From positions 288,218 to 352,217 of the forward strand of contig NZ_MUXT01000001.1 in the NCBI RefSeq assembly GCF_002014965.1: DNA of 64,000 nucleotides. The letters are read 5' to 3'. The stretch comes from Moraxella canis (GTDB taxonomy: Bacteria > Pseudomonadota > Gammaproteobacteria > Pseudomonadales > Moraxellaceae). The notes under the pieces were generated by a model. It was not told the DNA's origin. It was given only the letters and a program-made list of their open reading frames with translations, and searched no databases. This document shows, piece after piece, positions 6,391 to 32,462 of this stretch. The position numbers were made by a program, and so were the translations under genes. How positions within the stretch are numbered: the stretch's first letter is position 1; each line of letters opens with the position of its first letter.

Positions 6391-7005
6391 ATGAATAGAT
6401 TAATTAGTATCAACGAAGCTTCCAAACAACTTGGCGTGTCCATCTCAACATTACGCAGATGGGACGAAAGTGGTGTACTTGTTGCTGAAAGAACACCTAA
6501 AGGACACAGACGTTACGATATTAGTAAAATCAACCCAAACCTACTGCATGGCATAGGCAACAAAGACCGAAAAACCATTGCCTATGCACGAGTATCAAGC
6601 CATGACCAAAAGGACGATTTAGAGCGTCAAATCCAAGTTTTAGAAATCTACTGTACCAAACAAGGCTGGACTTATGAGATCATCAATGATTTAGGTTCTG
6701 GCATGAACTACCATAAAAAAGGACTTAAACAACTGCTTGACGGCATATTAAACAATGAAATCGGCAGATTGGTTTTAACCCATAAAGACCGCCTATTACG
6801 CTTTGGTGCAGAACTTGTCTTTGCTATCTGTGAAGCAAGAAACGTTGAAGTTATCATCATCAACCAAGGCGAAAACCTATCCTTTGAAGAAGAGCTTGCT
6901 CAAGATGTGCTAGAAATCATTACGGTATTTTCAGCAAGACTATATGGCTCACGAAGTCAAAAGAATAAAAAACTGCTTGAAGCCGTTAAGGTAGCATTGG
7001 AATGA
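6391..7005 (+). CDS. tnpA: IS607 serine recombinase TnpA
   Basis: Transposase of the IS607 element, 204 residues. Residues 1-45 form a MerR-like winged helix-turn-helix (ISINEASKQLGVSISTLRRW and GHRRYD). Residues 62-200 are a resolvase catalytic domain with YARVSSHDQKDDLERQ (catalytic Ser69 by the YxRVS rule) and the later LTHKDRLLRFG motif with the conserved arginines. The family cuts and rejoins DNA through phosphoserine links at GG sites. The reading frame is complete. Its last four bases overlap the start of tnpB (ATGA), so the two are translationally coupled. Confidence 0.93.
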   Translation: MNRLISINEASKQLGVSISTLRRWDESGVLVAERTPKGHRRYDISKINPNLLHGIGNKDRKTIAYARVSSHDQKDDLERQIQVLEIYCTKQGWTYEIINDLGSGMNYHKKGLKQLLDGILNNEIGRLVLTHKDRLLRFGAELVFAICEARNVEVIIINQGENLSFEEELAQDVLEIITVFSARLYGSRSQKNKKLLEAVKVALE

Positions 7006-8174
7006 CGGTTATTCGTGGACACATCATTCGACTTGACCCAACCAATAAACAAGCCACACATTTTAGCAAAGCCTGCGGTGTCGCACGTCTCGCCTATAAT
7101 TGGGCGTTGGCAGAATGGAAAAACCAATACGAACAAGACAAAAACTACCGTGATGACTGTCAAGCAAAAGGCATAACCCTTGACGAAAACCGACTTAACA
7201 AACCATCACAAGGCAAACTAAGAAAACAGCTTAACGCCATAAAACGTGAAAAATACCCATTCATGCTAGAAGTAACCAAGTGCAGTCCACAACTTGCTAT
7301 TATGCAACTAGGCGATGCCTTTAAACGCTTTTTTAAAGGGGAAAGCAAATATCCCCAATTTCGCAAAAAAGGCGTCAATGACCGTTTTAGCCTATCCAAT
7401 GACCAATTTAAACTCAAAACCATCAATAACAAACCACACATTCAAATCCCAAATTTAGGTTTGATAAGAATGCGTGAAAACTTGCGCCATCAAGGGAAAA
7501 TTTTATCCGCCAAAGTCTTTAAACAAGGCGAAAACTGGTTTGTATCAGTTGCCGTTGAACTTGATGAAATTAACAAACCATTAAACAAAACAGGCGAACA
7601 CGTTGGCATAGACTTAGGCATAAGTGATTTAGCCGTATTATCAGACGGCACAAAAGCACAAGCTCCTAAGCCATTAAAAACCAAACTCAAACAATTAAAA
7701 CGACTAAGCAAACAGCTCAGCCGAAAACAAAAAGGCTCTAAAAATCGTGAAAAAGCGAAAACCAAGCTATCACGATTGCATTACAAAATCAGTTGTATCA
7801 GAAAAGACTTTACTCATAAGCTCACAACCCAACTTGTCAAAAGTTATGACGTGATTTGCATTGAAAACCTTAACGTTAAAGGTATGGTTAAAAACCGTCA
7901 ATTAAGCCGAGCCATTAGCGATTTAGGGTTTTATGAGTTTAAGCGACAGCTGATTTATAAAGCCAACCAATGGGGCAAGACCATCAAAGCATTGAACAGA
8001 TTTTATCCAAGCTCTAAAACTTGTTCAAATTGCGGTTTTATGATGGCAAAAGAAAACTTGACACTTGCGGTTAGACATTGGATTTGTCCTAGTTGTCATG
8101 CCAATCATGACCGTGATATTAATGCAAGTATCAATATTTTAAATCAGGCAGATAAGGTTTTAACTTTATCTTAA
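7002..8174 (+). CDS. tnpB: TnpB RNA-guided nuclease of IS607 (OrfB)
   Basis: A 390-residue TnpB, ancestor-type relative of Cas12. The RuvC catalytic residues all appear present: Asp204 in GIDLGISDLAVL, Glu288 in ICIENLNVKGM, and Asp372 in HDRDINAS. A four-cysteine zinc ribbon (CSNC at 341-344, CPSC at 362-365) lies between the second and third motifs, as in active family members. The N-terminal region is of the OrfB_IS605 HTH type and the middle is rich in Lys and Arg, fitting RNA and DNA binding. TnpB proteins use an omega RNA made from the element's 3' end to cut empty donor sites and so help the element persist. Confidence 0.93.
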   Translation: MTVIRGHIIRLDPTNKQATHFSKACGVARLAYNWALAEWKNQYEQDKNYRDDCQAKGITLDENRLNKPSQGKLRKQLNAIKREKYPFMLEVTKCSPQLAIMQLGDAFKRFFKGESKYPQFRKKGVNDRFSLSNDQFKLKTINNKPHIQIPNLGLIRMRENLRHQGKILSAKVFKQGENWFVSVAVELDEINKPLNKTGEHVGIDLGISDLAVLSDGTKAQAPKPLKTKLKQLKRLSKQLSRKQKGSKNREKAKTKLSRLHYKISCIRKDFTHKLTTQLVKSYDVICIENLNVKGMVKNRQLSRAISDLGFYEFKRQLIYKANQWGKTIKALNRFYPSSKTCSNCGFMMAKENLTLAVRHWICPSCHANHDRDINASINILNQADKVLTLS

Positions 8175-9357: not shown

Positions 9358-9897
9358 ATGTCTCACCCAACTCAGCCTGCGCCCATCACTTCACCTGCTG
9401 GCACCCCAAAAGTCGGTATCATCATGGGCTCTCAATCAGACTGGGCAACGATGTCTGAAGCGGCGCAGATTTTGGCAGATTTTGGCGTGGCGTTTGAGTG
9501 TGAAGTGGTGTCAGCGCACCGCACGCCTGATAAGCTATTTGATTATGCCAAAGCCGCCAAAGACAAAGGCTTGCAAATCATCATCGCAGGCGCTGGCGGC
9601 GCAGCACACTTGCCAGGGATGTGCGCCAGCCAAACCCCACTGCCTGTACTTGGCGTGCCTGTCAAATCCAGCACATTGAGCGGCTGGGACAGTTTATTAT
9701 CCATCGTGCAGATGCCAAAAGGCGTGGCGGTTGGCACGCTTGCGATCGGCACCGCTGGCGCATTTAATGCTGGCTTACTTGCCCTGCAGATTTTGGCGCT
9801 GCACGACAGCCGCTTGGCACAGCTGCTTGATGAATTTCGCACCAAGCAAACCGATACCGTGCTTGCCAGTCCTACGCCTGGAATCATCAATCCCTGA
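9358..9897 (+). CDS. purE: N5-carboxyaminoimidazole ribonucleotide mutase PurE
   Basis: Moves the carboxyl group of N5-CAIR to give CAIR in purine synthesis, acting after PurK. The signature GSQSDWATM (residues 24-32), the SAHRTPD motif with the catalytic His, and the glycine-rich [11 protein letters not shown] segment are all present. Length 179 residues, slightly longer at the N-terminus than usual. AAGGA is 5-10 bases upstream of the ATG. purK follows after 92 bases that contain a strong hairpin, so the pair may not be simply co-transcribed. Confidence 0.95.
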
Positions 9898-9948
9898 TGG
9901 ATCGGTATTTGGCAAATTAACGCCCATTTTTTTATTAAAATATGCGAT

Positions 9949-9989
9949 AATATCCGAAATTTTTTTTGTAGATTTTTCGGATATTTTTT
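9949..9989 (+). promoter_or_regulatory. Terminator-like hairpin directly before purK
   Basis: AATATCCGAAA (9949-9959) and TTTCGGATATT (9975-9985) are perfect 11-base complements with a 15-base T-rich loop, followed by TTTT and then the purK ATG at 9990. It has the form of a rho-independent terminator, though AT-rich, and it takes up the place where a ribosome site should be. A possible extended -10 element, TGCGATAAT, overlaps its left edge (9943-9951). The role as attenuator, terminator for purE, or operator is undecided. Confidence 0.55.
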
Positions 9990-11111
9990 ATGAGTGATTC
10001 CATCAAAACCATCGGTATTCTTGGCGGCGGTCAGCTTGGGATGATGCTTGCTCAAGCTGCCCTAAAGCTCGGCTATCGCTGCGTCTTTTTAGAAGATGCT
10101 GACAATGCGCCAGCTGCTTTATATGGGCAAGTGTTTAAATACGATGAGCTTGATGATTTTATTGCTGTCAGCGATGTCTTTACTTTAGAATTTGAAAATA
10201 CGCCTGTCAAGACAGCCAAATCACTGGCAAACCTTGAGCATAAAGGCGGCTTATTCCCGCCCACCAATGCTTTGGAAGTCGCCCAAAACCGATTGGCAGA
10301 AAAAGCCTTATTTAATGAGTTAAACATCAACACCGTACCATTTATGGCGGTAAAAAGCTTGGATGAGTTACACACTGCCGCCAAAACCCTTGGACTGCCT
10401 TTGGTCTTAAAGACCAGCCGTGGCGGCTATGACGGCAAAGGACAATTTGTCATAAAAACTATCGATGAAATCGGCGCAGCTTGGGATGAGCTTGGCGGCG
10501 CGGTCACTGGCGATGGCGGTCTGACTGATACACCTGCACCACTGATTGCCGAAGGATTTATTAACTTTAGCCGCGAAGTCTCGATCATCGCCGTACGCGC
10601 TCAAGATGGCGACATCAGCTATTATCCACTGGTTGAAAATCATCACACCAATGGCATCTTATCAAAAACCATCGCGCCTGCTGCCGATGTCGATCATCTG
10701 ACCGAGCAAGCCCAATCCAACATCGGTAAAATTCTAAGCCATCTTGATTATGTGGGTGTGCTGACGCTTGAGCTATTTGTGACTGACTCAGGCTTAATCG
10801 CCAATGAGATTGCGCCGCGCGTGCATAACTCTGGTCACTGGAGCATTGAAGGCGCTCATTGCAGTCAATTTGAAAACCACATTCGCGCCGTCGTTGGCTT
10901 GCCGCTGGGCGACACCCAAGTGATCAAGCCATCGGTCATGCTAAATATCATTGGCACTTATCCAGATGCTCATTTGGTGCTGGCGCACTCTGGGGTGCAT
11001 TTGCATCATTATCATAAAGATGAGCGCGCAGGACGCAAAATCGGGCACATCACGGTGATGACCGATGCACTTGATCAAACCGTCGCAAACATCGAGCAGC
11101 TGCTTTCATAG
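9990..11111 (+). CDS. purK: N5-carboxyaminoimidazole ribonucleotide synthase PurK
   Basis: ATP-grasp enzyme that carboxylates AIR with bicarbonate, giving N5-CAIR for PurE. The N-terminal nucleotide-fold motif GILGGGQLGMML (residues 8-19) fixes the start near 9990. The ATP-grasp motifs are seen as LVLKTSRGGYDGKGQF and, near the C-terminal third, IANEIAPRVHNSGHW. Length 373 residues, normal. No Shine-Dalgarno sequence is visible because an 11-bp hairpin and T tract lie immediately before the ATG. Follows purE on the same strand, the usual order. Confidence 0.95.
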   Translation: MSDSIKTIGILGGGQLGMMLAQAALKLGYRCVFLEDADNAPAALYGQVFKYDELDDFIAVSDVFTLEFENTPVKTAKSLANLEHKGGLFPPTNALEVAQNRLAEKALFNELNINTVPFMAVKSLDELHTAAKTLGLPLVLKTSRGGYDGKGQFVIKTIDEIGAAWDELGGAVTGDGGLTDTPAPLIAEGFINFSREVSIIAVRAQDGDISYYPLVENHHTNGILSKTIAPAADVDHLTEQAQSNIGKILSHLDYVGVLTLELFVTDSGLIANEIAPRVHNSGHWSIEGAHCSQFENHIRAVVGLPLGDTQVIKPSVMLNIIGTYPDAHLVLAHSGVHLHHYHKDERAGRKIGHITVMTDALDQTVANIEQLLS

Positions 11112-22477: not shown

Positions 22478-22506
22478 TATTTTATACCCTTGAATCGCCA
22501 AACCAA

Positions 22507-22627
22507 TTACAACACCTTTTGATAATAAACCTCATAAGGTGTTCGCCAGTTTAAACATTTTCTTGGTCGTAGATTAAGCCTAGCGACCTTTGTTTGTGTG
22601 TATTGATTATCCCATTGTTCAATGCCT
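22507..22627 (-). pseudogene. C-terminal remnant of an IS30-family transposase
   Basis: Reading the minus strand gives about 39 residues ending in the IS30 C-terminal signature: IEQWDNQYTQTK, then LRPRKCLNWRTPYEVYY and a stop. Upstream of that frame there is a stop codon and unrelated sequence, so only the 3' tip of the gene survives. The 120 bases between this and the IS3 remnant (22628-22748) match nothing I recognise. Confidence 0.8.
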
Positions 22628-22760
22628 TGTTACTTTGGAAAATATCCCCGAAGCAAACCACTGGTGTTTTCGTTACTTCTTCTTTGCCAAGGCTGGCTTG
22701 GTGGTGGAAAGTAAAAGTTTGCTTTTAGACTATACCGATCACCTATTTTCAAACACCCCC

Positions 22761-23069
22761 CTAAGAGGGCTTTATTAAAAAACTGTCGTTCTTTTTGGCA
22801 GGGCTTAGATAGTTATTAAAGCTGTGGGGTCTGATTTGACTGTAATAGCCAAGGAGATAACGTGCCAAATCTGTGTTTGCTTCATGAATGTTCTCATAGC
22901 CAAGTTTTGGCACCCATTCGGTTTTAAAACTTCGAAACAATCGTTCTGTTGGTGCGTTATCCCAGTAGTTGCCTTTTGTACTCATACTGTGTGTCATATT
23001 GCATTTAACAATAGCATCGGCAAATGCAGGACTGGTGTAGAAATCTTTGATCTGAATCAAATAACACAC
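22761..23069 (-). pseudogene. 3' fragment of IS3-family transposase OrfB
   Basis: Encodes the end of an IS3 OrfB integrase domain: MSTKGNYWDNAPTERLFRSF (with the catalytic Glu of the DDE triad) and YSQIRPHSFNNYLSPA near the end. The first two catalytic Asp residues are missing. Its apparent ATG lies inside unrelated or shifted sequence. The stop codon lies within the right inverted repeat. Confidence 0.85.
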
Positions 23070-23129
23070 CTGTTGGCTTAAGGCATACGGTATACGCCAC
23101 GGTTAATACTAAAGTCGTTCAAGCTCTCG

Positions 23130-23330
23130 TTATTCTGGTGTTAGGGCATGACCTGTGGGTAGTGGCTTGCCTTGAAGTTTAAGACGATAACGCTTAAGCC
23201 AGTTTTCTAAAGTAGATTGACCGATATCATATTGCTTAGCAACATTAACAACACGCTGATTTTGTTCTTCAATGAGTTTTACCATTTCTAATTTAAATTC
23301 GCTACTGTACTGCTTACGCTGTTTTGTCAT
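23130..23330 (-). pseudogene. IS3-family OrfA (helix-turn-helix), part of a dead element
   Basis: A 66-residue OrfA with the family N-terminus RKQYSSEFKLEMVKLIEEQ and the helix-turn-helix QYDIGQSTLENWLKRY. In IS3 elements OrfA binds the ends and is fused to OrfB by frameshifting. Here the frame ends soon after and the matching start of OrfB is deleted, so no OrfAB transposase can be made. The reading frame itself is open. Confidence 0.8.
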
Positions 23331-23561
23331 GAGAGATTACTCCTAATTTGGGATAGTATAACCTCTTATGGGGTGTCTGAGATGTTGTATTGGTGCATTA
23401 CTGGCGATGTCAATATAGGCTTGAGATGTCCTTTTAGACGATATTTTGCGGTATCTGATACAATCAAATCAAAATAAATTGCAAACATTATGTGTGTTAG
23501 TTCAGTCCAAACCCAATCTAACAACTCTTATTTTAAAAAATTCATCCATATAGGATAAAGG

Positions 23562-24245
23562 TGTCTAAACTCAACTTAGATGCACTCTGTCGCTATCAGA
23601 AATGGCAAGCCAAGGTGGCTTGTTGATGCGTTGATCAACCAATCAAAATGAGTACACAATCTTAAAAATCGAGTAGCTGAAGCAACCAAAGGTGCTGTCA
23701 TCAAATATGCCATGAATCATCCAGTGTATAGACAAGTCAGAGCGCCCAATGAACTATGCAAATTCGGTGTATTCTTGAGAAACCAAAGTCGTAACGGGTG
23801 GCATTATTCTCACAGAATCACAAGTCATTGCCCCTAAAAGCAAAAAGAAGATGATATTGCCTGCGGTGACATTGAAACGGCTCATCTTAGCCATCTTGAC
23901 TCCCAAGATGCCTTTTATGTAGGTAATGTAAAAGGCGTAAGACGTATTTACCAATAGATTTTTGTGGATGCTTATAGCAAAGCAGCTCTTGCAAGTGATA
24001 CACCACCAAAACGCCGATTACAAGTTATCTCTTGCGATTAATGATATTGAGCATACAAAGACAAAGCTTGCTCACCTCAAACTCATGGTATCTATGAGCG
24101 GTTTTATAAAATAATATTGCAGGAGCTTTATCAAGTGAGATATAGGAAAAATCTGTATAGTTTGCTTGACCAGTTGCAGTTTGATCTAGATATTTGGTTA
24201 ATCTTCCACAATAATGAGCGGACTCACCTACCTTTTTTATAGGTA
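23562..24245 (+). pseudogene. Degenerate IS481-family transposase
   Basis: Translating the plus strand across several frames gives successive pieces of an IS481-type transposase: AMNHPVYRQVRAPNELCKFG near 23710, then LDSQDAFYVGNVKGVRRIYQ near 23890, IFVDAYSKAALA after an in-frame stop, and ERFYKIILQELYQVRYRKNL plus LDIWLIFHNNERTH near 24100-24220. Many stops and frameshifts and a central deletion remove any function. This fills most of the otherwise gene-free stretch before 24431. Confidence 0.75.
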
Positions 24246-24304
24246 ACCAGATGAAGTCTGGATTGGTACAAAATCAGCAAGATTAAATACTCTGGACAGT
24301 CGAA

Positions 24305-24375
24305 AATGAGTGCCATTCATGCCATTTTTATGTACATATTTTGAAAAAACAGGTAAAATTTTAATGGCACTCATT
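24305..24375. repeat. Perfect 13-bp inverted repeat spanning 71 bp
   Basis: AATGAGTGCCATT at 24305-24317 and AATGGCACTCATT at 24363-24375 are exact inverted copies separated by 45 AT-rich bases. The unit has the size of a small palindromic repeat or of the ends of a miniature element. No second copy was noticed in this window. Confidence 0.7.
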
Positions 24376-24430
24376 AAAGCAGTCGCTGCTTTTGGTGCTT
24401 GTTACGTTGGCTAAAGCAAAAAGGTTGGTT

Positions 24431-24721
24431 ATGCGATTTGACTTATTACGGCGAGATCGTACCTTACGGCGACTGCTCATCACGTCATTTGTGATGTCAA
24501 TTTTGGTATTTGTCGCCAAAGCTTATGAGGATCGGACGGATCCTGTACCTACTGGATATTTGTACGACTTGTCGAGTCGATATTATCATCCTGATAGTGA
24601 TCCGACAGTGCTGCAAAAGCATCCAGAATTAAAACGCGCGCTCGAGGCGGCTTATGCCGATGGATTACTCACCAAGCCTGAGCTTAAGCGCATTGAACAG
24701 CTTGAGCGTGACGTAGATTGA
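24431..24721 (+). CDS. Small membrane protein of unknown function
   Basis: A 96-residue protein with one predicted membrane helix (about residues 14-31, LLITSFVMSILVFVAKAY) and a charged C-terminal helix rich in Leu, Glu and Lys. The ATG at 24431 has AAGG 7 bases upstream; an earlier TTG start is less likely. I do not recognise a family. It lies 46 bases before the M48 peptidase gene in the same direction and may be co-transcribed with it, which would suggest an envelope role. Confidence 0.6.
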   Translation: MRFDLLRRDRTLRRLLITSFVMSILVFVAKAYEDRTDPVPTGYLYDLSSRYYHPDSDPTVLQKHPELKRALEAAYADGLLTKPELKRIEQLERDVD

Positions 24722-24767
24722 GCATCTTAAGCTGGCATTATCAGATATCATCAAACAAGGAAAAATT

Positions 24768-25583
24768 ATGAAACGGAGACTCTTAGCCCCTTTGGCCATC
24801 AGTGCGGCATTACTTGGCTGTGTTAGCACGACCACAGGCACCGACATCAATCCTGAGCGCAAGCAGCTGCTTATTTATTCCAATGCCGAAATGCAGCGAA
24901 TGGCAGACAACTATTATCGCCAAACCTTAGCAGAATCACGCAGCCGAGGTGTGCTAGACAGCAATACTGCCCAGGTTAATCGTGTGCGTACTGTAGCCTC
25001 TCGATTGATTCCCCATGTGTCGTTGTTACGACAAGATGCCGCAGGCTGGGATTGGCGGGTTCATGTCATCACAGACGATACTGTCAATGCCTATGTCATG
25101 CCTAATGCTAAAATTGTCTTTTACTCGGGCATTATTGAGCGACTAAATTTGAGGGATGCTGAAATTGCTGCCATCATGGGTCATGAAATGGCGCATGCCT
25201 TGCGTGAACACTCACGTGAAAAAATCAGCCGGCGCGTTGCGACCAACGCCACCTTTGGCTTGGCAACCTCTTTATTTGGCTTGGGTGGCAGCGGTGTTCA
25301 GGCTTTAGGCTTGGCAGGCAACCTAGGATTAACCTTGCCTCACTCACGCTTTCAAGAAACTGAGGCGGATAAAATTGGGCTTGAGCTGATGGCACGCGCA
25401 GGCTATAACCCACAAGCTGCTGTCACTTTGTGGCAAAAAATGGAAGCCATGCAAGCAAATAGCGATGTGATCCGTGTTGGCTTTTTAAGCACGCACCCAA
25501 CCTCAACCAATCGTGTCAAGGAGCTGCAAGCCATGCAAGGGGCGGTTAAACCTTTGTATGAAGCGGCTCGTCAAGGTCGTTAA
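24768..25583 (+). CDS. M48-family metallopeptidase, lipoprotein (LoiP/YcaL type)
   Basis: Zinc peptidase of 271 residues anchored in the envelope by a lipid. The signal peptide ends in the lipobox LLGC (Cys18). The zinc motif HEMAH (about residues 140-144) lies in the usual M48 context AAIMGHEMAHALREHSRE, and the third zinc ligand is the Glu of ETEADKIGLELM about 60 residues on. E. coli homologues LoiP, YcaL and BepA degrade misassembled outer-membrane proteins. Asn after the lipobox Cys is absent (Val19), so outer-membrane retention is not excluded. Strong AAGGA site before the ATG. Confidence 0.9.
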   Translation: MKRRLLAPLAISAALLGCVSTTTGTDINPERKQLLIYSNAEMQRMADNYYRQTLAESRSRGVLDSNTAQVNRVRTVASRLIPHVSLLRQDAAGWDWRVHVITDDTVNAYVMPNAKIVFYSGIIERLNLRDAEIAAIMGHEMAHALREHSREKISRRVATNATFGLATSLFGLGGSGVQALGLAGNLGLTLPHSRFQETEADKIGLELMARAGYNPQAAVTLWQKMEAMQANSDVIRVGFLSTHPTSTNRVKELQAMQGAVKPLYEAARQGR

Positions 25584-25682
25584 ACTCATTCAAAAAGGCA
25601 GATTCACGCAACATTATGTGGACGCAAATCAGCCTGGGGTAGATAATGGTAACTAAACGAATTGTAAACAAATAGGGGCTTA

Positions 25683-26241
25683 ATGATGAAAGAATCAACA
25701 ACAGCACTCGCATTGTTCGTAATGCCTTTAGCAGCGGCTGCAACCATACCTGCTTATGCCAATGCTGGCGAAGTACAAGGTTACATGGTTGACATCTGCA
25801 AGCCTGCGGAAGCTGAGGGTGTAGAGTTTGCCGACGAGACGCTCAACAGAGATTTTTGTAGCGCTCAAGCGGCCAAAGCGTATAAAAAATTTGGCACTAA
25901 GGACATTAATTTTGCAAATAAATTCGTTTTGACAAGAATGTATGGCACAAGTTATGTCGCTATTGACCCTGCTAAAAAACAAGTCTATGTGATGCCCTTT
26001 GCCATTGAAAATTCGCGAAATAGTGGAAAACCGGGCAAAATCACGTTCAAAAAAAAATAGCCATAGAGTGTGTACTTACGGTGATGACACCTCTTTGCCT
26101 GCCTATAATGTTTTTTCTACCGGTGGCGACTCAAGCCATCCTGAGTACAACTTGTGTATAGAGTTTTACCCCACCGAGGGTTTTAGTCAGTATTACAATC
26201 CTGTGCATATCAAAACAGGTCGTATCGCTTCAAGACTATAA
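25683..26241 (+). pseudogene. Secreted Cys-containing protein split by frameshift at an A9 tract
   Basis: The first frame (25683-26060) encodes a signal peptide (cleavage near AYA-NA) and about 100 mature residues, then stops right after a run of nine A at 26049-26057. Removing one A joins it to the next frame, which continues with NSHRVCTYGDD to a stop at 26241, giving about 185 residues with four or more Cys. The joined protein aligns along its length with the intact paralogue at 28254-28868, for example KITFKKNSHRVC against KLSYGKNSNRLC. It may be a phase-variable gene, a pseudogene or a sequencing error. The function is unknown. Confidence 0.7.
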
Positions 26242-26512
26242 AAACCACCCTACCATCAGCATGTAAGCAATGTGATGTAATCCTCTCCCTAAAGTGAGGG
26301 GAGTAAGTCAATGATATATTTGTTAATGAGATTGAAACACAACATGCGGATATAGACTTTAACTTGCGGCGAAGCTAGGCTAAGGTGCGGACTTAACGGC
26401 TTGTTTAGGTTGGGTTTGTCTACGCTGGATCATATCGCGTCGGCGATTGACCTTTTTTGCACCCCAAAGGTGTGCTAAACTGTCAGTAAGTTTGCATATT
26501 TTAAGGATTTTT

Positions 26513-26851
26513 ATGAAAAAATTTATTTTGGCAGCGTCATCACTCCTTTTATTGACCGCCTACGCTTCTGAACAGCCTGCGGCGGCTACCAATCCACAAG
26601 CAACTCATGAGCCAACCGAAATGCTATACCCGGTTGTTACGGATTCAGGCATACTGTATTCTCATGATAACAGCACTGAAGAAGAAATAGAGGCTGAAAT
26701 CAACCGTGTGCCGCCTGGCACAGTAAGGTGTGGCAGTGCCTTTTACCCTTTATTTGATATCTTGCAGCAGGAAGAAAAAAGAATCCTGTATAACTTTACA
26801 ACCGGCCCTGAATGGATTGAATGTACTGATGAGCCGATTTTTATGGATTAA
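26513..26851 (+). CDS. Small secreted protein of unknown function
   Basis: A 112-residue protein with a signal peptide, LAASSLLLLTAYASEQ. The cleavage region looks like a lipobox (LLTAC) whose Cys is replaced by Tyr; as it stands, AYA-S fits signal peptidase I. The mature part is acidic, with two Cys (VRCGSAF and IECTDE) that could form a disulphide. I do not recognise a family. AAGGA lies 6 bases before the ATG, and a terminator follows 38 bases after the stop. The 271 bases upstream hold no gene that I can see. Confidence 0.65.
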   Translation: MKKFILAASSLLLLTAYASEQPAAATNPQATHEPTEMLYPVVTDSGILYSHDNSTEEEIEAEINRVPPGTVRCGSAFYPLFDILQQEEKRILYNFTTGPEWIECTDEPIFMD

Positions 26852-26889
26852 TTGAACTGATCTTGTCATCTCTATTTTTGTAGATCACT

Positions 26890-26912
26890 GCCCGCATTAT
26901 GCGGGCTTTTAT
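26890..26912 (+). terminator. Rho-independent terminator
   Basis: GCCCGCA and TGCGGGC form a GC-rich 7-bp stem with a 3-base loop, followed by TTTTATTTT. It ends the transcript of the small secreted protein gene before it. Confidence 0.88.
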
Positions 26913-27067
26913 TTTCCAAAAATTCACGGCAAGGCGTGGTGGTTTAAGGGTATGTTTAAAATCTACGTGCCTGCTGGGCTTGGGCGATAATATGGTTTGA
27001 CAGGTAGTTAACCCACCACATACACAGAGGTATTTTATACAAGCCAAGACCAAAAAAACTGTGAATT

Positions 27068-27096
27068 AAAAAAAACACCCTTTTTAAAGGGTGTTT
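27068..27096 (-). terminator. Rho-independent terminator
   Basis: AAACACCCTTT and AAAGGGTGTTT form an 11-bp stem with a 2-base loop. On the minus strand a long T run follows, so it serves the small gene at 27113-27295. Confidence 0.85.
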
Positions 27097-27112
27097 CGTT
27101 TCTTGCTAGATA

Positions 27113-27295
27113 TTAATAGCAGTCTATCTCATCGTTAGTGCCTGCACTAATTTCGGCATAGACCTGATTTTCCGCCTTATGTGAGCCAACATTTAACTCA
27201 AGACCATCCTCCAAAGTATCCAAAACAATCATCGCACATTGATCATTGTGATAATCTGCTTTGATGACCTTGCCTGAAATTTGCAACGTATTCAT
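27113..27295 (-). CDS. Small hypothetical protein
   Basis: Encodes 60 residues without signal peptide or membrane helix: a short beta-rich sequence (LQISGKVIKADYH, AMIVLDTL, LELNVGSH) ending with a CY pair. No family recognised. The start at 27295 is preferred, with GGAG 8 bases upstream; an ATG four codons earlier is possible. Support for it being real is the ribosome site and the well-placed terminator at 27068-27096. Confidence 0.5.
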   Translation of the reverse strand: MNTLQISGKVIKADYHNDQCAMIVLDTLEDGLELNVGSHKAENQVYAEISAGTNDEIDCY

Positions 27296-27360
27296 CTTTG
27301 ACTCCATCCAGCATTATCACTAATCAATTTGATATTTTTAGAAATCAAGCTGGTTCGTTT

Positions 27361-27972
27361 TTAGCCGTTTTCATCAATATATAAAGCAGTAAAATAATTA
27401 TCGTATGGGTATTTTTGAATATCGACATACGCACGATACTTGACAACAAAGTTACCGCGCTTATCTATAATCGCATATTGATCAGGGCGGTGGGCTGCAC
27501 CTTCCTCACGATAAATTTGTGCATCAGCAGCATGATTAATCACCGCCGCATAGCCATGAAAAAATGCACGACTGGATAAATGATCTTTGTTGGTATGACC
27601 AAAATTAAAAGGGATGGCGACCGCGCCGTTTGGATATAAGTAGCCAGCTTTGTAAGAGTTGGTCGCACGATCTTTGATAACCGCATAAATCAAACCGTCC
27701 GTTTCTTCACCCAAGTATTCATACTTGCGCACATCAAATTGATAACGCGATTGATCCGCAAGCGTGATCTTTTTATTATCAACAGCGACATACGGTTTTC
27801 TTGGATCGTCAATATAACGGCGTGCCGCATCTGTGCCAATTAACCACTCAAGCTTCTTAAAATTACTCACCTTTTTTTCATACGCTTGCTCTGGTGATAA
27901 ATTAGGATCAATGGTTGCACATGCTGAAAGGGCAAGTGATGCGCCGACAACCAATGGTAAATATTTTTTCAT
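27361..27972 (-). CDS. Lipoprotein with WG-repeat-like segments
   Basis: A 203-residue protein with a lipoprotein signal peptide, lipobox LSAC (Cys19). After a linker (residues about 24-60) the sequence contains repeated motifs of the form G-x-x-x-P-x-G-x-x-x-x-P-F and YAIIDKRGNFVVKY, which resemble WG/KWG repeats found in surface proteins. Ser or Ala follows the Cys, so outer-membrane sorting is likely. GGAGC lies 6 bases before the ATG at 27972; a longer frame starting at 28011 lacks a ribosome site. The function is unknown. Confidence 0.7.
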   Translation of the reverse strand: MKKYLPLVVGASLALSACATIDPNLSPEQAYEKKVSNFKKLEWLIGTDAARRYIDDPRKPYVAVDNKKITLADQSRYQFDVRKYEYLGEETDGLIYAVIKDRATNSYKAGYLYPNGAVAIPFNFGHTNKDHLSSRAFFHGYAAVINHAADAQIYREEGAAHRPDQYAIIDKRGNFVVKYRAYVDIQKYPYDNYFTALYIDENG

Positions 27973-28011
27973 AACAGCTCCTTTTGGTGTGTGAAAGTAA
28001 TGAATTAACAA

Positions 28012-28208
28012 TTACTGCCTTGCCTTGTATCCAAAAACCGTAGCCAGCATTGCAAAATTTTGTTTTAGTGTTTTGATATCATCTAAGTAGCGCTGTTTTG
28101 CTTTTTGTTTTGACTCAATAATTTCGATTAAATTGCTGATCAATGAGCTTATAAGAGGCGTTATCCAGCCCCATGATATCCGGATACTCCTCGTGTCTGT
28201 CTTTCAAA
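28012..28208 (-). pseudogene. Frameshifted coding remnant, family unknown
   Basis: The minus strand reads a coding-like peptide broken by one frameshift: YPDIMGLDNASYKL in one frame continues as LIEIIESKQKAKQRYLDDI and KQNFAMLATVFGYKARQ in another, then a stop. The charged helical composition suggests a decayed coiled-coil gene. No start or ribosome site is seen. It sits between a terminator and the lipoprotein gene. Confidence 0.35.
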
Positions 28209-28212
28209 GGCA

Positions 28213-28245
28213 ATAAAAACCCCTAAAGATGGCGAACTTTAGGGG
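28213..28245 (-). terminator. Rho-independent terminator
   Basis: CCCCTAAAG and CTTTAGGGG form a 9-bp stem with an 8-base loop and are followed on the minus strand by TTTTTATT. It lies just after the stop of the 28254-28868 gene. Confidence 0.9.
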
Positions 28246-28253
28246 GCGAAGCG

Positions 28254-28868
28254 TTAAGACCAGGCGGACCAATACGGTCCTTTTTTATCTTCTTTTAGCC
28301 AGTAACAGGTGTGATTTTCAATATCATACTCTTTTGACATGACATCAAACCCAAACTCAGAATCCCAAATTTGTAAACCAGAAGCGGTGTTAATGCACAA
28401 TCGGTTACTGTTTTTACCGTAAGAAAGTTTAGGCGGGTTCGCTGAGCTTGCCGATTGCCCAATAACGGGTAGTACAGACACTTTTTTTGATGACTTATGG
28501 ATTGCAAACCAGACTGTTTCAGTCCTGTTAGCATTGGGGTAAGTGTGTTGGTACAGGACGTAATTTGTATTAAAATTAGCAGGTTTGGCAAAAGCTTGGT
28601 TTAATAATTTGCCAGTACTTTTGGTATTGCAAAATTTAACACTGCGTGGATCTTTGGCAAGTCCACTGGCTTCAATGGCATGCTCTTCGGCGGCATAGCA
28701 ACGATCCACCCAAAAATTGCCAACTTTCTTAAAATCCGGGCGCATAAAATCATCTTCAACAGCAGCAATGGCTTCATAAGCAGGGTCAAACTCGTCCTCA
28801 TAATCCGCCAGTGCATTGTTTGAAACTACCAAGCCTGCCACTAGGGATAGAATCAAGACCTTTTTCAT
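28254..28868 (-). CDS. Secreted Cys-rich protein, intact paralogue of 25683-26241
   Basis: A 204-residue exported protein with a signal peptide (cleavage near NNALA-DY, residue 21). The mature part has four Cys (in DRCYAAEE, KFCNTK, RLCINTA and HTCYWLK), probably two disulphides. The central and C-terminal parts align with the frameshifted gene at 25683-26241 on the other strand. The N-terminal acidic stretch of about 25 residues is extra. Family and function are unknown. A ribosome site GGGAG is found upstream of the ATG and a strong terminator follows. Confidence 0.75.
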   Translation of the reverse strand: MKKVLILSLVAGLVVSNNALADYEDEFDPAYEAIAAVEDDFMRPDFKKVGNFWVDRCYAAEEHAIEASGLAKDPRSVKFCNTKSTGKLLNQAFAKPANFNTNYVLYQHTYPNANRTETVWFAIHKSSKKVSVLPVIGQSASSANPPKLSYGKNSNRLCINTASGLQIWDSEFGFDVMSKEYDIENHTCYWLKEDKKGPYWSAWS

Positions 28869-28901
28869 TAATAAGCTCCCTAAATTATCGTTAAATCAAG
28901 G

Positions 28902-29127
28902 TTATTGTAGCAAACCCAAATCAAAATAAGCAAGAATTAATGACAACTTGAGTTTGCCAGCACGCGCGGCATCTTCCATCATTTTCTCAAAGATGGCACC
29001 ATCCGCATTGTATTGGCATATTTTACCCCCCTCCCGAAGCGTTTGTATTACTTAAAGATGTAGAATTTGACCCTTGTGCCGCCGACAAATCACGATAAAT
29101 GGTAAAGTTTGTGCGCTGGCTGGCATA
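28902..29127 (-). pseudogene. Coding remnant broken at a G6 tract, family unknown
   Basis: The minus strand reads YASQRTNFTIYRDLSAAQGS and NTNASGGG, stops just after a run of six G, and continues in the next frame as KICQYNADGAIFEKMMEDAA and GKLKL to a stop at 28902. No start or signal is present, so this is the tail of a lost gene. It fills part of the 380-base gap left of the integrase-like gene. Confidence 0.35.
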
Positions 29128-29248
29128 AATTCAATCCCTGTACGCATCAATGGAATGACAATGGAAAATCATATTCGGTTCGCCATGAGGAGCTATTATT
29201 TTTGCATTTTAAGGGCTCTACATCAATGAATAGACAGCTAATCTTTAA

Positions 29249-30196
29249 AACAGTACCTATTTTCCATTTACCAATAAAGTCATGAATGATTTTTTGGGTG
29301 CTGGCAGAAATACCTCGGTTTTTCAGAAATATAATCTTGTTGAACCAGATGGTAGTGTTAGTAAATTGAGAACTCATATTCCAAGGCATAATATTAATAC
29401 CTTTTTGGCGATTGCTGGGGTTGAAGATCATTTGCAAGCTATGCTAATGGGTCGGCTCGATATCAGACAAAACCATCATTATCAACACCTAACAGAGAAC
29501 CTTTTAGCAAAAACTGTTAATGTATCTGCAGTTTCAACTGATGATGTAAAACTTGGTGAGATTGACTACATTACACCGCAAGAAATTGTGGAAAAAACAG
29601 GCTGCATTGCTTATAATCCAAATCTTGATTTGGATACAAACCTGAAGGTTGGCTTAGGTACTTTTGATGGTAGCAAAGATTTTGTCTCGTTTTTGCGAAG
29701 TGGTGCTGATGTTCTTTCTGATACTTTAGTGGGCTGTCAGGCTGCATTGGATGAACTGGATGAAGATATGGAGTTGGAAGAAGTGTCTCAGAAGAACTCC
29801 CAAGCCCTCCCCCTTTCGATTGGATTTTATGTAAAGCAAATGGTGAATTGGGGATGCGTTTATCGTTTAAAGTGTCAGTCTGGTGAGTTTTGCCCGCATT
29901 TTACATTAACAGGTCGCATGGATGAATATGCAAAGCTGCCCGCAAAACGGGGTCAGCTAGAAGACCAAATAAAAGTTTTAGAAGATTTACAAGAAACCAC
30001 ATCTGGTTATGATAAAGCATTGGTACGCATGAATCATTCAAAAGAAAATTTAACTCATCTTCAGGTATATCTGTCTCAATATTTAACGTCATTGAATGTT
30101 GTGAAAATTGAACAGATTCTTGATTCGACAACTTCATTCAAAGCATTAGCACAACTGTTTGCTCTGGAGCAACATAAAATTAACGAGGTATCATAA
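29249..30196 (+). pseudogene. Truncated integrase-like gene, probable gmtZ C-terminal part
   Basis: An open frame of 304 residues (from an internal ATG at 29282) encodes the C-terminal part of a tyrosine-recombinase-like protein. The segment LRTHIPRHNINTFLAIAG then GRLDIRQNHHYQHL matches the HxxR-H...GH...Y layout of integrases, with Arg in place of the second His. A coiled-coil region follows (about residues 225-265). The frame continues upstream in coding-like sequence to a stop at 29246-29248, so the N-terminal half is missing. Position directly before a 144-residue partner resembles the gmtZ-gmtX end of Gamma-Mobile-Trio elements; Tn554-type TnpB/TnpC is the alternative. Confidence 0.55.
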
Positions 30197-30630
30197 TGAG
30201 AGGCAAAGCATTTGATATAGAAATTGAAAAAGAATTGCAATTAATGCTGATGGAAGGAATTGAGCAATCCCCTATTAGCGCTTCAAGCTTATATACGCGA
30301 TTAAAAGCGAAGGGATTAATTAAAAGTAGCGGCTTAAGCATCCTGAGTACACATCGGAGCAAAGAGCTAATCGAGCGATATAAATACAAGCAGTTTATGG
30401 AGTTTGAGCCAAGTCCCAGTTCTCTTGAATCAGATGCTGGACGCAACTCTAAAGCTGCGCTAGTTAAGAGAAATAAAGAGCTTGGAGCTAGAAGTGCTGA
30501 GCTAGAAGATAGACTTGCTCGTAATTCAGCCACAATTATTGAGATTGCTAAATACATTCAGATAAACATCAACTATTCGGTGGCGTCTTTACTTGAGGGG
30601 TATCTAGTTAGGGAGATAAGACAACAATGA
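30196..30630 (+). CDS. Small partner of integrase-like protein, probable GmtX
   Basis: A 144-residue protein: an N-terminal winged-helix-like part (residues 1-60, SASSLYTRLKAKGLI and STHRSKELIERY), a polar linker, and a coiled coil (about 90-120). Its ATG overlaps the stop of the integrase-like gene, so it was part of that operon. Size, order and coiled coil fit GmtX of Gamma-Mobile-Trio elements, a protein of unknown biochemical role; Tn554 TnpC-like proteins are similar in form. A few codons of another frame begin at its stop (ATGA at 30627) and end at 30674, so a downstream gene is missing. Confidence 0.55.
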   Translation: MRGKAFDIEIEKELQLMLMEGIEQSPISASSLYTRLKAKGLIKSSGLSILSTHRSKELIERYKYKQFMEFEPSPSSLESDAGRNSKAALVKRNKELGARSAELEDRLARNSATIIEIAKYIQININYSVASLLEGYLVREIRQQ

Positions 30631-30711
30631 GTGTTGCTTCGAATTTGGGCTTTATCAAGCCACTGTTATTGTAAATATTGCTCGATATAGAGGTGATGAG
30701 CTTTGGATGGC

Positions 30712-31221
30712 TTATGGTATCTGCCAAGGTATTACCTTGTTTTGATTCAATAGTTTTTGATCTATCACCAATGGATGAGGATCAATCGCTTTTAATAAGC
30801 GTTTTAATTTATCTTTCAAATCTGATAAATTATAAATTTGCTTTTTGCCATTGGGTTGTTCAATATGTAAAACCACACGAATTTGTTCACATGCTAAAGC
30901 ATTGCATGCGAAGGAGCGTTCTTTTTCATCATTCGCACAAAATTTAGCAGATACCAACCCTGCCAAAGAATCACGAACTTTTTGTGCAATTTCTTGTTCC
31001 AATGGCGGTTTATCTGGGTTTCTGGTACCTATGCGAAAATCTTTGATTTCGCATAACCACACCATATCTTTTGATTTGCGATATGCAATAATATCCACTG
31101 CTTTATTATCAGCACTACATTTGTTTTGAAATTGGTTTCTGTAGTGGCTCCAATCATCGTATTTACTTGCAACAATATCGCTTTCAAAATGAAAACTTAA
31201 AGAATCTTCAGTAATAATCAT
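30712..31221 (-). CDS. Putative PD-(D/E)xK nuclease, partner of ATPase
   Basis: A 169-residue protein. Residues about 41-64 read KAVDIIAYRKSK then WLCEIKDFR, the spacing and hydrophobic pattern of a PD-(D/E)xK nuclease active site (Asp44, Glu-x-Lys at about 57-59). A helix with EQEIAQKVRDSLAGL follows, as in many restriction-like folds. The rest is mixed alpha/beta with two Cys pairs. No signal peptide. It starts 12 bases after the ATPase gene and is certainly its operon partner. ATPase plus small nuclease is a layout common in abortive-infection systems; the family here is not one I can name. Confidence 0.6.
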   Translation of the reverse strand: MIITEDSLSFHFESDIVASKYDDWSHYRNQFQNKCSADNKAVDIIAYRKSKDMVWLCEIKDFRIGTRNPDKPPLEQEIAQKVRDSLAGLVSAKFCANDEKERSFACNALACEQIRVVLHIEQPNGKKQIYNLSDLKDKLKRLLKAIDPHPLVIDQKLLNQNKVIPWQIP

Positions 31222-31233
31222 ATTTATCTCAAC

Positions 31234-32250
31234 TCATAACTGTAAATAACGTTCTGATTGTGCTAAATTTTCATCCAATGCAACAATGGTATCTAAATCA
31301 TCTAAACACTTACCTTGCTGTATTTGTATCAAGCCATCATCATCTTTTATTAGTGAAAAATAATGTGCTTGAGATTGGTTGTTTTGCAAAATTTCCAATT
31401 CTCGCAATAAAAATAATGAATGTGTTGCAATAAATACTTGAATATTTTGCTGAGATAATTCAAAAATAATTTTAGCAGCTACTTTAATTAATTTTGGATT
31501 TAAATTAGATTCAGGCTCATCCCAAAATAAATAACCTTTACCCAATAATGAACCGGTTGCAACCAAATGTGCAATCATCATGAATTTTCTCATGCCTTCG
31601 GCTACCAGTGGTGCTTCCACACTGCCTAAATAAAATCGACCACTATAGTTATCCATAATAACTTTGTCACCCATGGCTTCTTCCAATGACGTGAGCAGCT
31701 TTTTAGCTGTTTTTGCCCTAGGACCTTTGAGCACTGGGAAACGTAATAATTTACAAGTATCCACCCAGTTTTCCTCAAATGGTGTGGCGACATCATCATA
31801 AGCATCAGGTAGCCAGTGAGATAAGGTGATTAGCTCCCTGGTAGGAATAAAAGCAGGTATGTCATTATATTCATCAGGAATCTTTTTAATATTCACTTGG
31901 GTGCTAGCATGATTAGAAAAATCAAGATGGGTTGTGGATTCCGACCCTATGGTTAAAACTAGCTCCGCACGACTACTTTTATTTTGTCGTTTGACTAGTC
32001 TTCCTAGGGAATCGGGTCGAAAAACCGCCAATAATTTATCTGCAAATATTTTTTGCAAATCCGTTTTGTACAATCTGTTTTTCTGTTTTTTATCGGATGT
32101 GACCTCTAATAATACATAGAGTATTTTTAATAAATGACTTTTACCTGCAGCATTTTCTGCCACAATGACATTTAAATTAGGTGAAAAATATAATGTTTCG
32201 TTAGGTAAAATGGTAAAGTTTTCAATTTTGAGCGACTTAATATGGTTCAT
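31234..32250 (-). CDS. SMC/AAA-type ATPase of a two-gene candidate defence unit
   Basis: A 338-residue ATPase of the AAA_15/AAA_21 type. Walker A is AENAAGKS (residues 31-38), with Ala where the first Gly is usual. A middle segment of about 150 residues is followed by the signature-like EGMRKFMMIAHLVATGSL, Walker B YLFWDEPESNLNP, and the switch His in FIATHS. There is no coiled-coil hinge or Toprim domain, so it is not a complete OLD nuclease. Such short ATPases pair with toxic effectors in PARIS-, Septu- and AbpAB-like systems. The start MNHIKSLKIENF is set by homology; an upstream frame to 32355 is unlikely. Confidence 0.8.
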   Translation of the reverse strand: MNHIKSLKIENFTILPNETLYFSPNLNVIVAENAAGKSHLLKILYVLLEVTSDKKQKNRLYKTDLQKIFADKLLAVFRPDSLGRLVKRQNKSSRAELVLTIGSESTTHLDFSNHASTQVNIKKIPDEYNDIPAFIPTRELITLSHWLPDAYDDVATPFEENWVDTCKLLRFPVLKGPRAKTAKKLLTSLEEAMGDKVIMDNYSGRFYLGSVEAPLVAEGMRKFMMIAHLVATGSLLGKGYLFWDEPESNLNPKLIKVAAKIIFELSQQNIQVFIATHSLFLLRELEILQNNQSQAHYFSLIKDDDGLIQIQQGKCLDDLDTIVALDENLAQSERYLQL

Positions 32251-32462
32251 TTTAATACTCAATACAATAAATTGGTATTTTATTATAACATGGTTATTAG
32301 ATCCAGTGGTCACGTGAAGAGTGGAATGGGTGATCATTTGGAGTGCAATATGCACATATGCTTTAATGCTTCATTTTGTGTGGTAACTTAATAATACATT
32401 AAATTGATGAATACTTCTTTTTTATTTGGTGTTGCGACTGGGTTGTAAATTCAAGCTCAATA

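What the first reader, a model, noticed from the sequence alone, without database searches (positions are those of the whole stretch)
30712..32250. Candidate two-gene anti-phage system: short SMC-like ATPase plus small PD-(D/E)xK nuclease
The sequence shows a compact operon: a 338-residue ATPase with Walker A (AENAAGKS), Walker B (WDEPESNLNP) and switch His (ATHS), then 12 bases later a 169-residue protein with a D...ExK nuclease-like core (VDIIAY, CEIKDF). Known defence systems such as PARIS, Septu and AbpAB pair an ATPase sensor with an effector nuclease, but they use Toprim, HNH or other partners. I do not recognise this exact pair. It stands beside what looks like a mobile-element terminus known for carrying defence cargo, which strengthens the guess.
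Basis: partly seen in the sequence, partly recalled or inferred. Interest (0 to 1): 0.8.

Follow-up and report, generated by a model that had tools for sequence, protein, structure and literature searches.

The report
Known-type ATPase–nuclease phage defence pair
This is a compact two-gene module, an ATPase plus a small nuclease-like protein, that belongs to an already catalogued candidate anti-phage family (HEC-02) and here sits next to the remains of a mobile genomic island in a Moraxella catarrhalis-like bacterium.

The parts
31234..32250 (-). HEC-02 ATPase (PADLOC label HEC-02B, PDLC04146), 338 aa, OLD/SMC-like ABC ATPase head
   Evidence: PADLOC 1.3e-126; Pfam AAA_15 and AAA_21 above cut-off; model close to PtuA, SMC and Rad50 heads
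30712..31221 (-). HEC-02 nuclease (PADLOC label HEC-02A, PDLC04145), 169 aa, PD-(D/E)xK type
30196..30630 (+). ginD/srap-like small recombination gene of the adjoining element, 144 aa
29282..30196 (+). C-terminal remnant of a ginC-like gene (304 aa left; the E. coli plasmid relative is 787 aa)
   Evidence: tblastn matches in 108 plasmid records, 83 of them covering 80% or more of the query; annotated operon
29116..32302 (.). [not shown]
22487..32461 (.). [not shown]

Best explanation
A member of the HEC-02 candidate anti-phage family: a tightly linked gene pair in which an OLD-type ABC ATPase is the sensor and scaffold and the small PD-(D/E)xK protein is the effector nuclease. Inferred working cycle: the ATPase dimerises or oligomerises through its ABC heads, binds the nuclease and keeps it quiet; a phage-made cue changes its ATP state; the nuclease then cuts nucleic acid, most likely DNA, so that the infection fails. 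Shown here: motifs, modelled folds, constant gene pairing, embedding in Hma defence loci in part of the family, and mobility. Inferred by analogy with PARIS and Septu/retron PtuAB: complex formation, sensing, substrate and outcome for the cell.
For: HEC-02 models hit both proteins and, for the ATPase, score far above every other system listed. 81 of 81 nuclease loci have the ATPase upstream. In the reverse direction 26 of 30 fetched ATPase loci have a small gene starting from 103 bases before to 12 bases after the ATPase stop, most with an E-x-K or E-x-R motif. In a draw of 398 genomes 6 have the nuclease and in 6 of 6 the ATPase lies beside it. HmaB lies on the same strand within the held flank in 18 of 81 loci, 14 of them also with HmaC, against 15 of 398 genomes having HmaB anywhere at E 1e-100; HmaA, HmaB and HmaC labels come. 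Pairwise tree distances of the two proteins correlate (r 0.38, 0 of 2000 permutations as high, 76 loci). Structure matches.
Confidence: 0.78

Rival explanations
1. Addiction (toxin-antitoxin-like) module of the mobile element: the nuclease harms cells that lose the island and the ATPase restrains it; any phage effect is secondary.
Against: Repeated placement near HmaB (18 of 81 loci) is not expected of a pure addiction module; the ATPase does not resemble a small labile antitoxin.
Confidence: 0.12
2. DNA-repair pair like a reduced Rad50/Mre11 or RecF-type unit: a head-only ABC ATPase directing a structure-specific nuclease in host DNA repair.
For: SMC and Rad50 heads are among the best structure matches of the ATPase; Hjc-type resolvases are among the weaker matches of the nuclease.
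Against: Sporadic distribution of the nuclease: 2 of 57 relatives and 6 of 398 genomes of the phylum draw; location in variable DNA here and in Hma loci elsewhere.
Confidence: 0.05
3. Auxiliary part of the Hma system rather than a separate defence.
For: hmaB upstream and hmaC downstream on the same strand in 14 of 81 loci.
Confidence: 0.05

Closest known systems
PADLOC-DB HEC-02 (Hma-embedded candidate; Payne et al. 2024 preprint, known here only through citing papers)
   Same: Both proteins match its models over nearly full length; ten sampled proteins of wider relatives also match HEC-02 models; embedding in Hma reproduced for part of the family
   Different: Here stand-alone and next to a GInt-type remnant rather than in an Hma locus
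OLD-ABC ATPase + PD-(D/E)XK REase dyads of BREX and BREX-related systems (PMC12839542, section 35 part 1)
   Same: Same two-component logic, found in defence loci
   Different: The text read names no accession for this pair; placing the window's ATPase in the OLD family is my inference
PARIS AriA-AriB
   Same: ABC ATPase sensor plus separate small effector nuclease (PMC12409363, passages)
   Different: AriB is a Toprim tRNase; the partner here is of PD-(D/E)xK type
Septu and retron PtuA-PtuB
   Same: Best or near-best structure matches of the ATPase
   Different: PtuB is an HNH nuclease; a PtuAB pair can sit as a separate insert in the same Hma locus as HEC-02 (L009, L049)
Lamassu LmuA/LmuB
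   Different: LmuB is a long coiled-coil SMC (recalled); this ATPase is a head of 338 aa

Membership tests
HEC-02 | Small protein matches a HEC-02 small-subunit model | tested here: met
   PDLC04145, 3.6e-52, residues 3-167 of 169
HEC-02 | ATPase matches a HEC-02 ATPase model | tested here: met
   PDLC04146, 1.3e-126, residues 4-337 of 338
HEC-02 | Two genes adjacent, same strand | tested here: met
   12-base gap in the window; 81 of 81 related loci
HEC-02 | Family found embedded in Hma loci | tested here: met
   HmaB in the held flank of 18 of 81 loci, 14 also with HmaC; not so for the window's own copy
HEC-02 | Anti-phage activity | not testable with these tools
   Needs plating assays; no published test of HEC-02 seen
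PD-(D/E)xK nucleases | D...E-x-K residues conserved | tested here: met
   E58 and K60 in 76 of 76, D43 in 75 of 76
PD-(D/E)xK nucleases | PD-(D/E)xK fold | tested here: met
   [not shown]
PARIS | Toprim effector AriB | tested here: not met
   Small protein matches only HEC-02 models at E 1 or better and carries the D...E-x-K motif
Septu | HNH effector PtuB | tested here: not met
   No PtuB match for the small protein at E 1 or better
GInt element | Complete ginABCD operon | tested here: not met
   [not shown]

The most novel reading that the evidence does not exclude
HEC-02 is an autonomous defence built on a conserved ATPase chassis whose PD-(D/E)xK partner diverges until little more than the catalytic core is shared, and in M. 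catarrhalis it travels as the sole cargo of a small GInt: a minimal defence-carrying mobile element.
Probability: 0.3. Interest if true: 0.5.

Novelty: new member of a known kind. Interest (0 to 1): 0.3.

Why it matters
If HEC-02 defends by itself, this pair of about 1.5 kb is a handy model for how an ABC ATPase controls a PD-(D/E)xK effector, to set beside the Toprim (PARIS) and HNH (PtuAB) versions that have solved structures. It also shows HEC-02 outside Hma loci, next to GInt-type recombination genes, in a human airway species.

Tried and rejected

Rows dropped: neighbour clustering and the +1/-1 PADLOC scans leave out 5 of 80 genome loci in which the ORF-choosing step lost the nuclease and neighbours under 120 aa; 64 and 65 neighbours were scanned, long ones cut at 700 aa. 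Tree and residue counts use 76 of 81 loci. The genome-contig scan kept the best 80 of 193 relatives. Of 31 ATPase places, 30 were fetched.

Full report
Observation. The two genes are as described: ATPase 31234-32250 and nuclease 30712-31221, both on the minus strand, 12 bases apart.

Identity. PADLOC-DB names the pair: HEC-02A for the small protein (3.6e-52) and HEC-02B for the ATPase (1.3e-126), far above the AriA, AbiLi, GajA and PtuA models for the ATPase. Pfam sees AAA_15, AAA_21 and AAA_23 above cut-off in the ATPase and nothing above cut-off in the small protein. HEC stands for Hma-embedded candidate in PMC12988326 (passages), which says that several HECs, naming HEC-06, showed antiviral activity; PMC11411939 (passages) discusses HEC-05 and HEC-06. 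Both cite Payne et al. 2024 (doi 10.1101/2024.01.29.577857), which is not held. A main-text search for HEC-02 found one paper, on hydroxyethyl cellulose. PMC12839542 (passages; section 35 part 1) reports 594 taxa in which OLD-ABC ATPases are paired with HNH, PD-(D/E)XK or PIN nucleases instead of Toprim in BREX and BREX-related loci. So the kind is in print.

Family test. A scan of public genomes with the nuclease profile found 193 relatives, of which the best 80 were kept, plus 1 viral contig. In 81 of 81 the ATPase gene lies directly upstream on the same strand, often overlapping by 4 bases. In an even draw of 398 genomes of the phylum, 6 had the nuclease and in 6 of 6 the ATPase lies beside it; 26 genomes had an ATPase match at 1e-40. 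Of the 30 ATPase loci fetched, 26 have a small downstream gene of 112-214 aa. The exceptions are L091, L101, L109 and L114; L114 ends 227 bases after the ATPase. Most of the 26 carry E-x-K; L096 reads E-x-T (sequence), L107 and L116 read E-x-R, and L119 is short. Ten proteins sampled from these loci, seven small partners and three ATPases, all match HEC-02 models. Over 76 pairs the nuclease is slightly less conserved than the ATPase (mean pairwise identity 48% against 52%).

Context. hmaB lies on the same strand in 18 of 81 loci, usually directly upstream (in L031 about 3.7 kb away), and 14 of the 18 have hmaC downstream; three of the other four loci end shortly after the pair. PADLOC labels these neighbours HmaB (13 of 64 upstream neighbours scanned) and HmaC (10 of 65 downstream). 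HmaB occurs in 15 of 398 genomes of the phylum draw. On the ATPase tree the states with and without HmaB need at least 11 changes, so the module has probably moved in or out repeatedly. Outside Hma the immediate neighbours give few defence matches, which weakens a general defence-island argument.

Mechanism. In PARIS an AriA hexamer holds three AriB until a phage protein triggers it (PMC12409363, passages). By analogy I propose that the ATPase senses and the PD-(D/E)xK protein executes. Motifs, modelled folds, pairing and context are shown; binding, trigger, substrate and cell fate are inferred. DNA is favoured as substrate because most PD-(D/E)xK enzymes in the VIA list cut DNA (recalled), but retron-Eco7 PtuB and AriB cut tRNA, so RNA is possible.

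Verdict. A well-supported member of a published candidate family; novelty is limited to its stand-alone, GInt-linked setting. Interest 0.3.

Noticed in passing
[not shown]
   Followed up: partly
PADLOC-DB models PDLC04145/04146 against PDLC04213-04230: Subunit letters are swapped inside HEC-02: nuclease is 'A' and ATPase 'B' in the first two models, the reverse in the others that appeared.
   Followed up: partly
P0011, P0012, P0023, P0040, P0072, P0081, P0095: Several relatives of the nuclease are named cysteinyl-tRNA synthetase by a public source, although the family looks like a PD-(D/E)xK nuclease; probably a propagated misannotation.
   Followed up: no
L048 (Neisseria weixii) 9535-10491: The pair appears broken into short frames (151 and 72 aa).
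   Followed up: no
[not shown]
   Followed up: partly
[not shown]
   Followed up: no
window 6391-8174: Serine recombinase plus TnpB-like gene, resembling an IS607-type element (recalled; ORFs).
   Followed up: no
L088/L096 (G120:C50): Nuclease partner reads LIEVTDY, E-x-T instead of E-x-K, possibly an inactive version.
   Followed up: no
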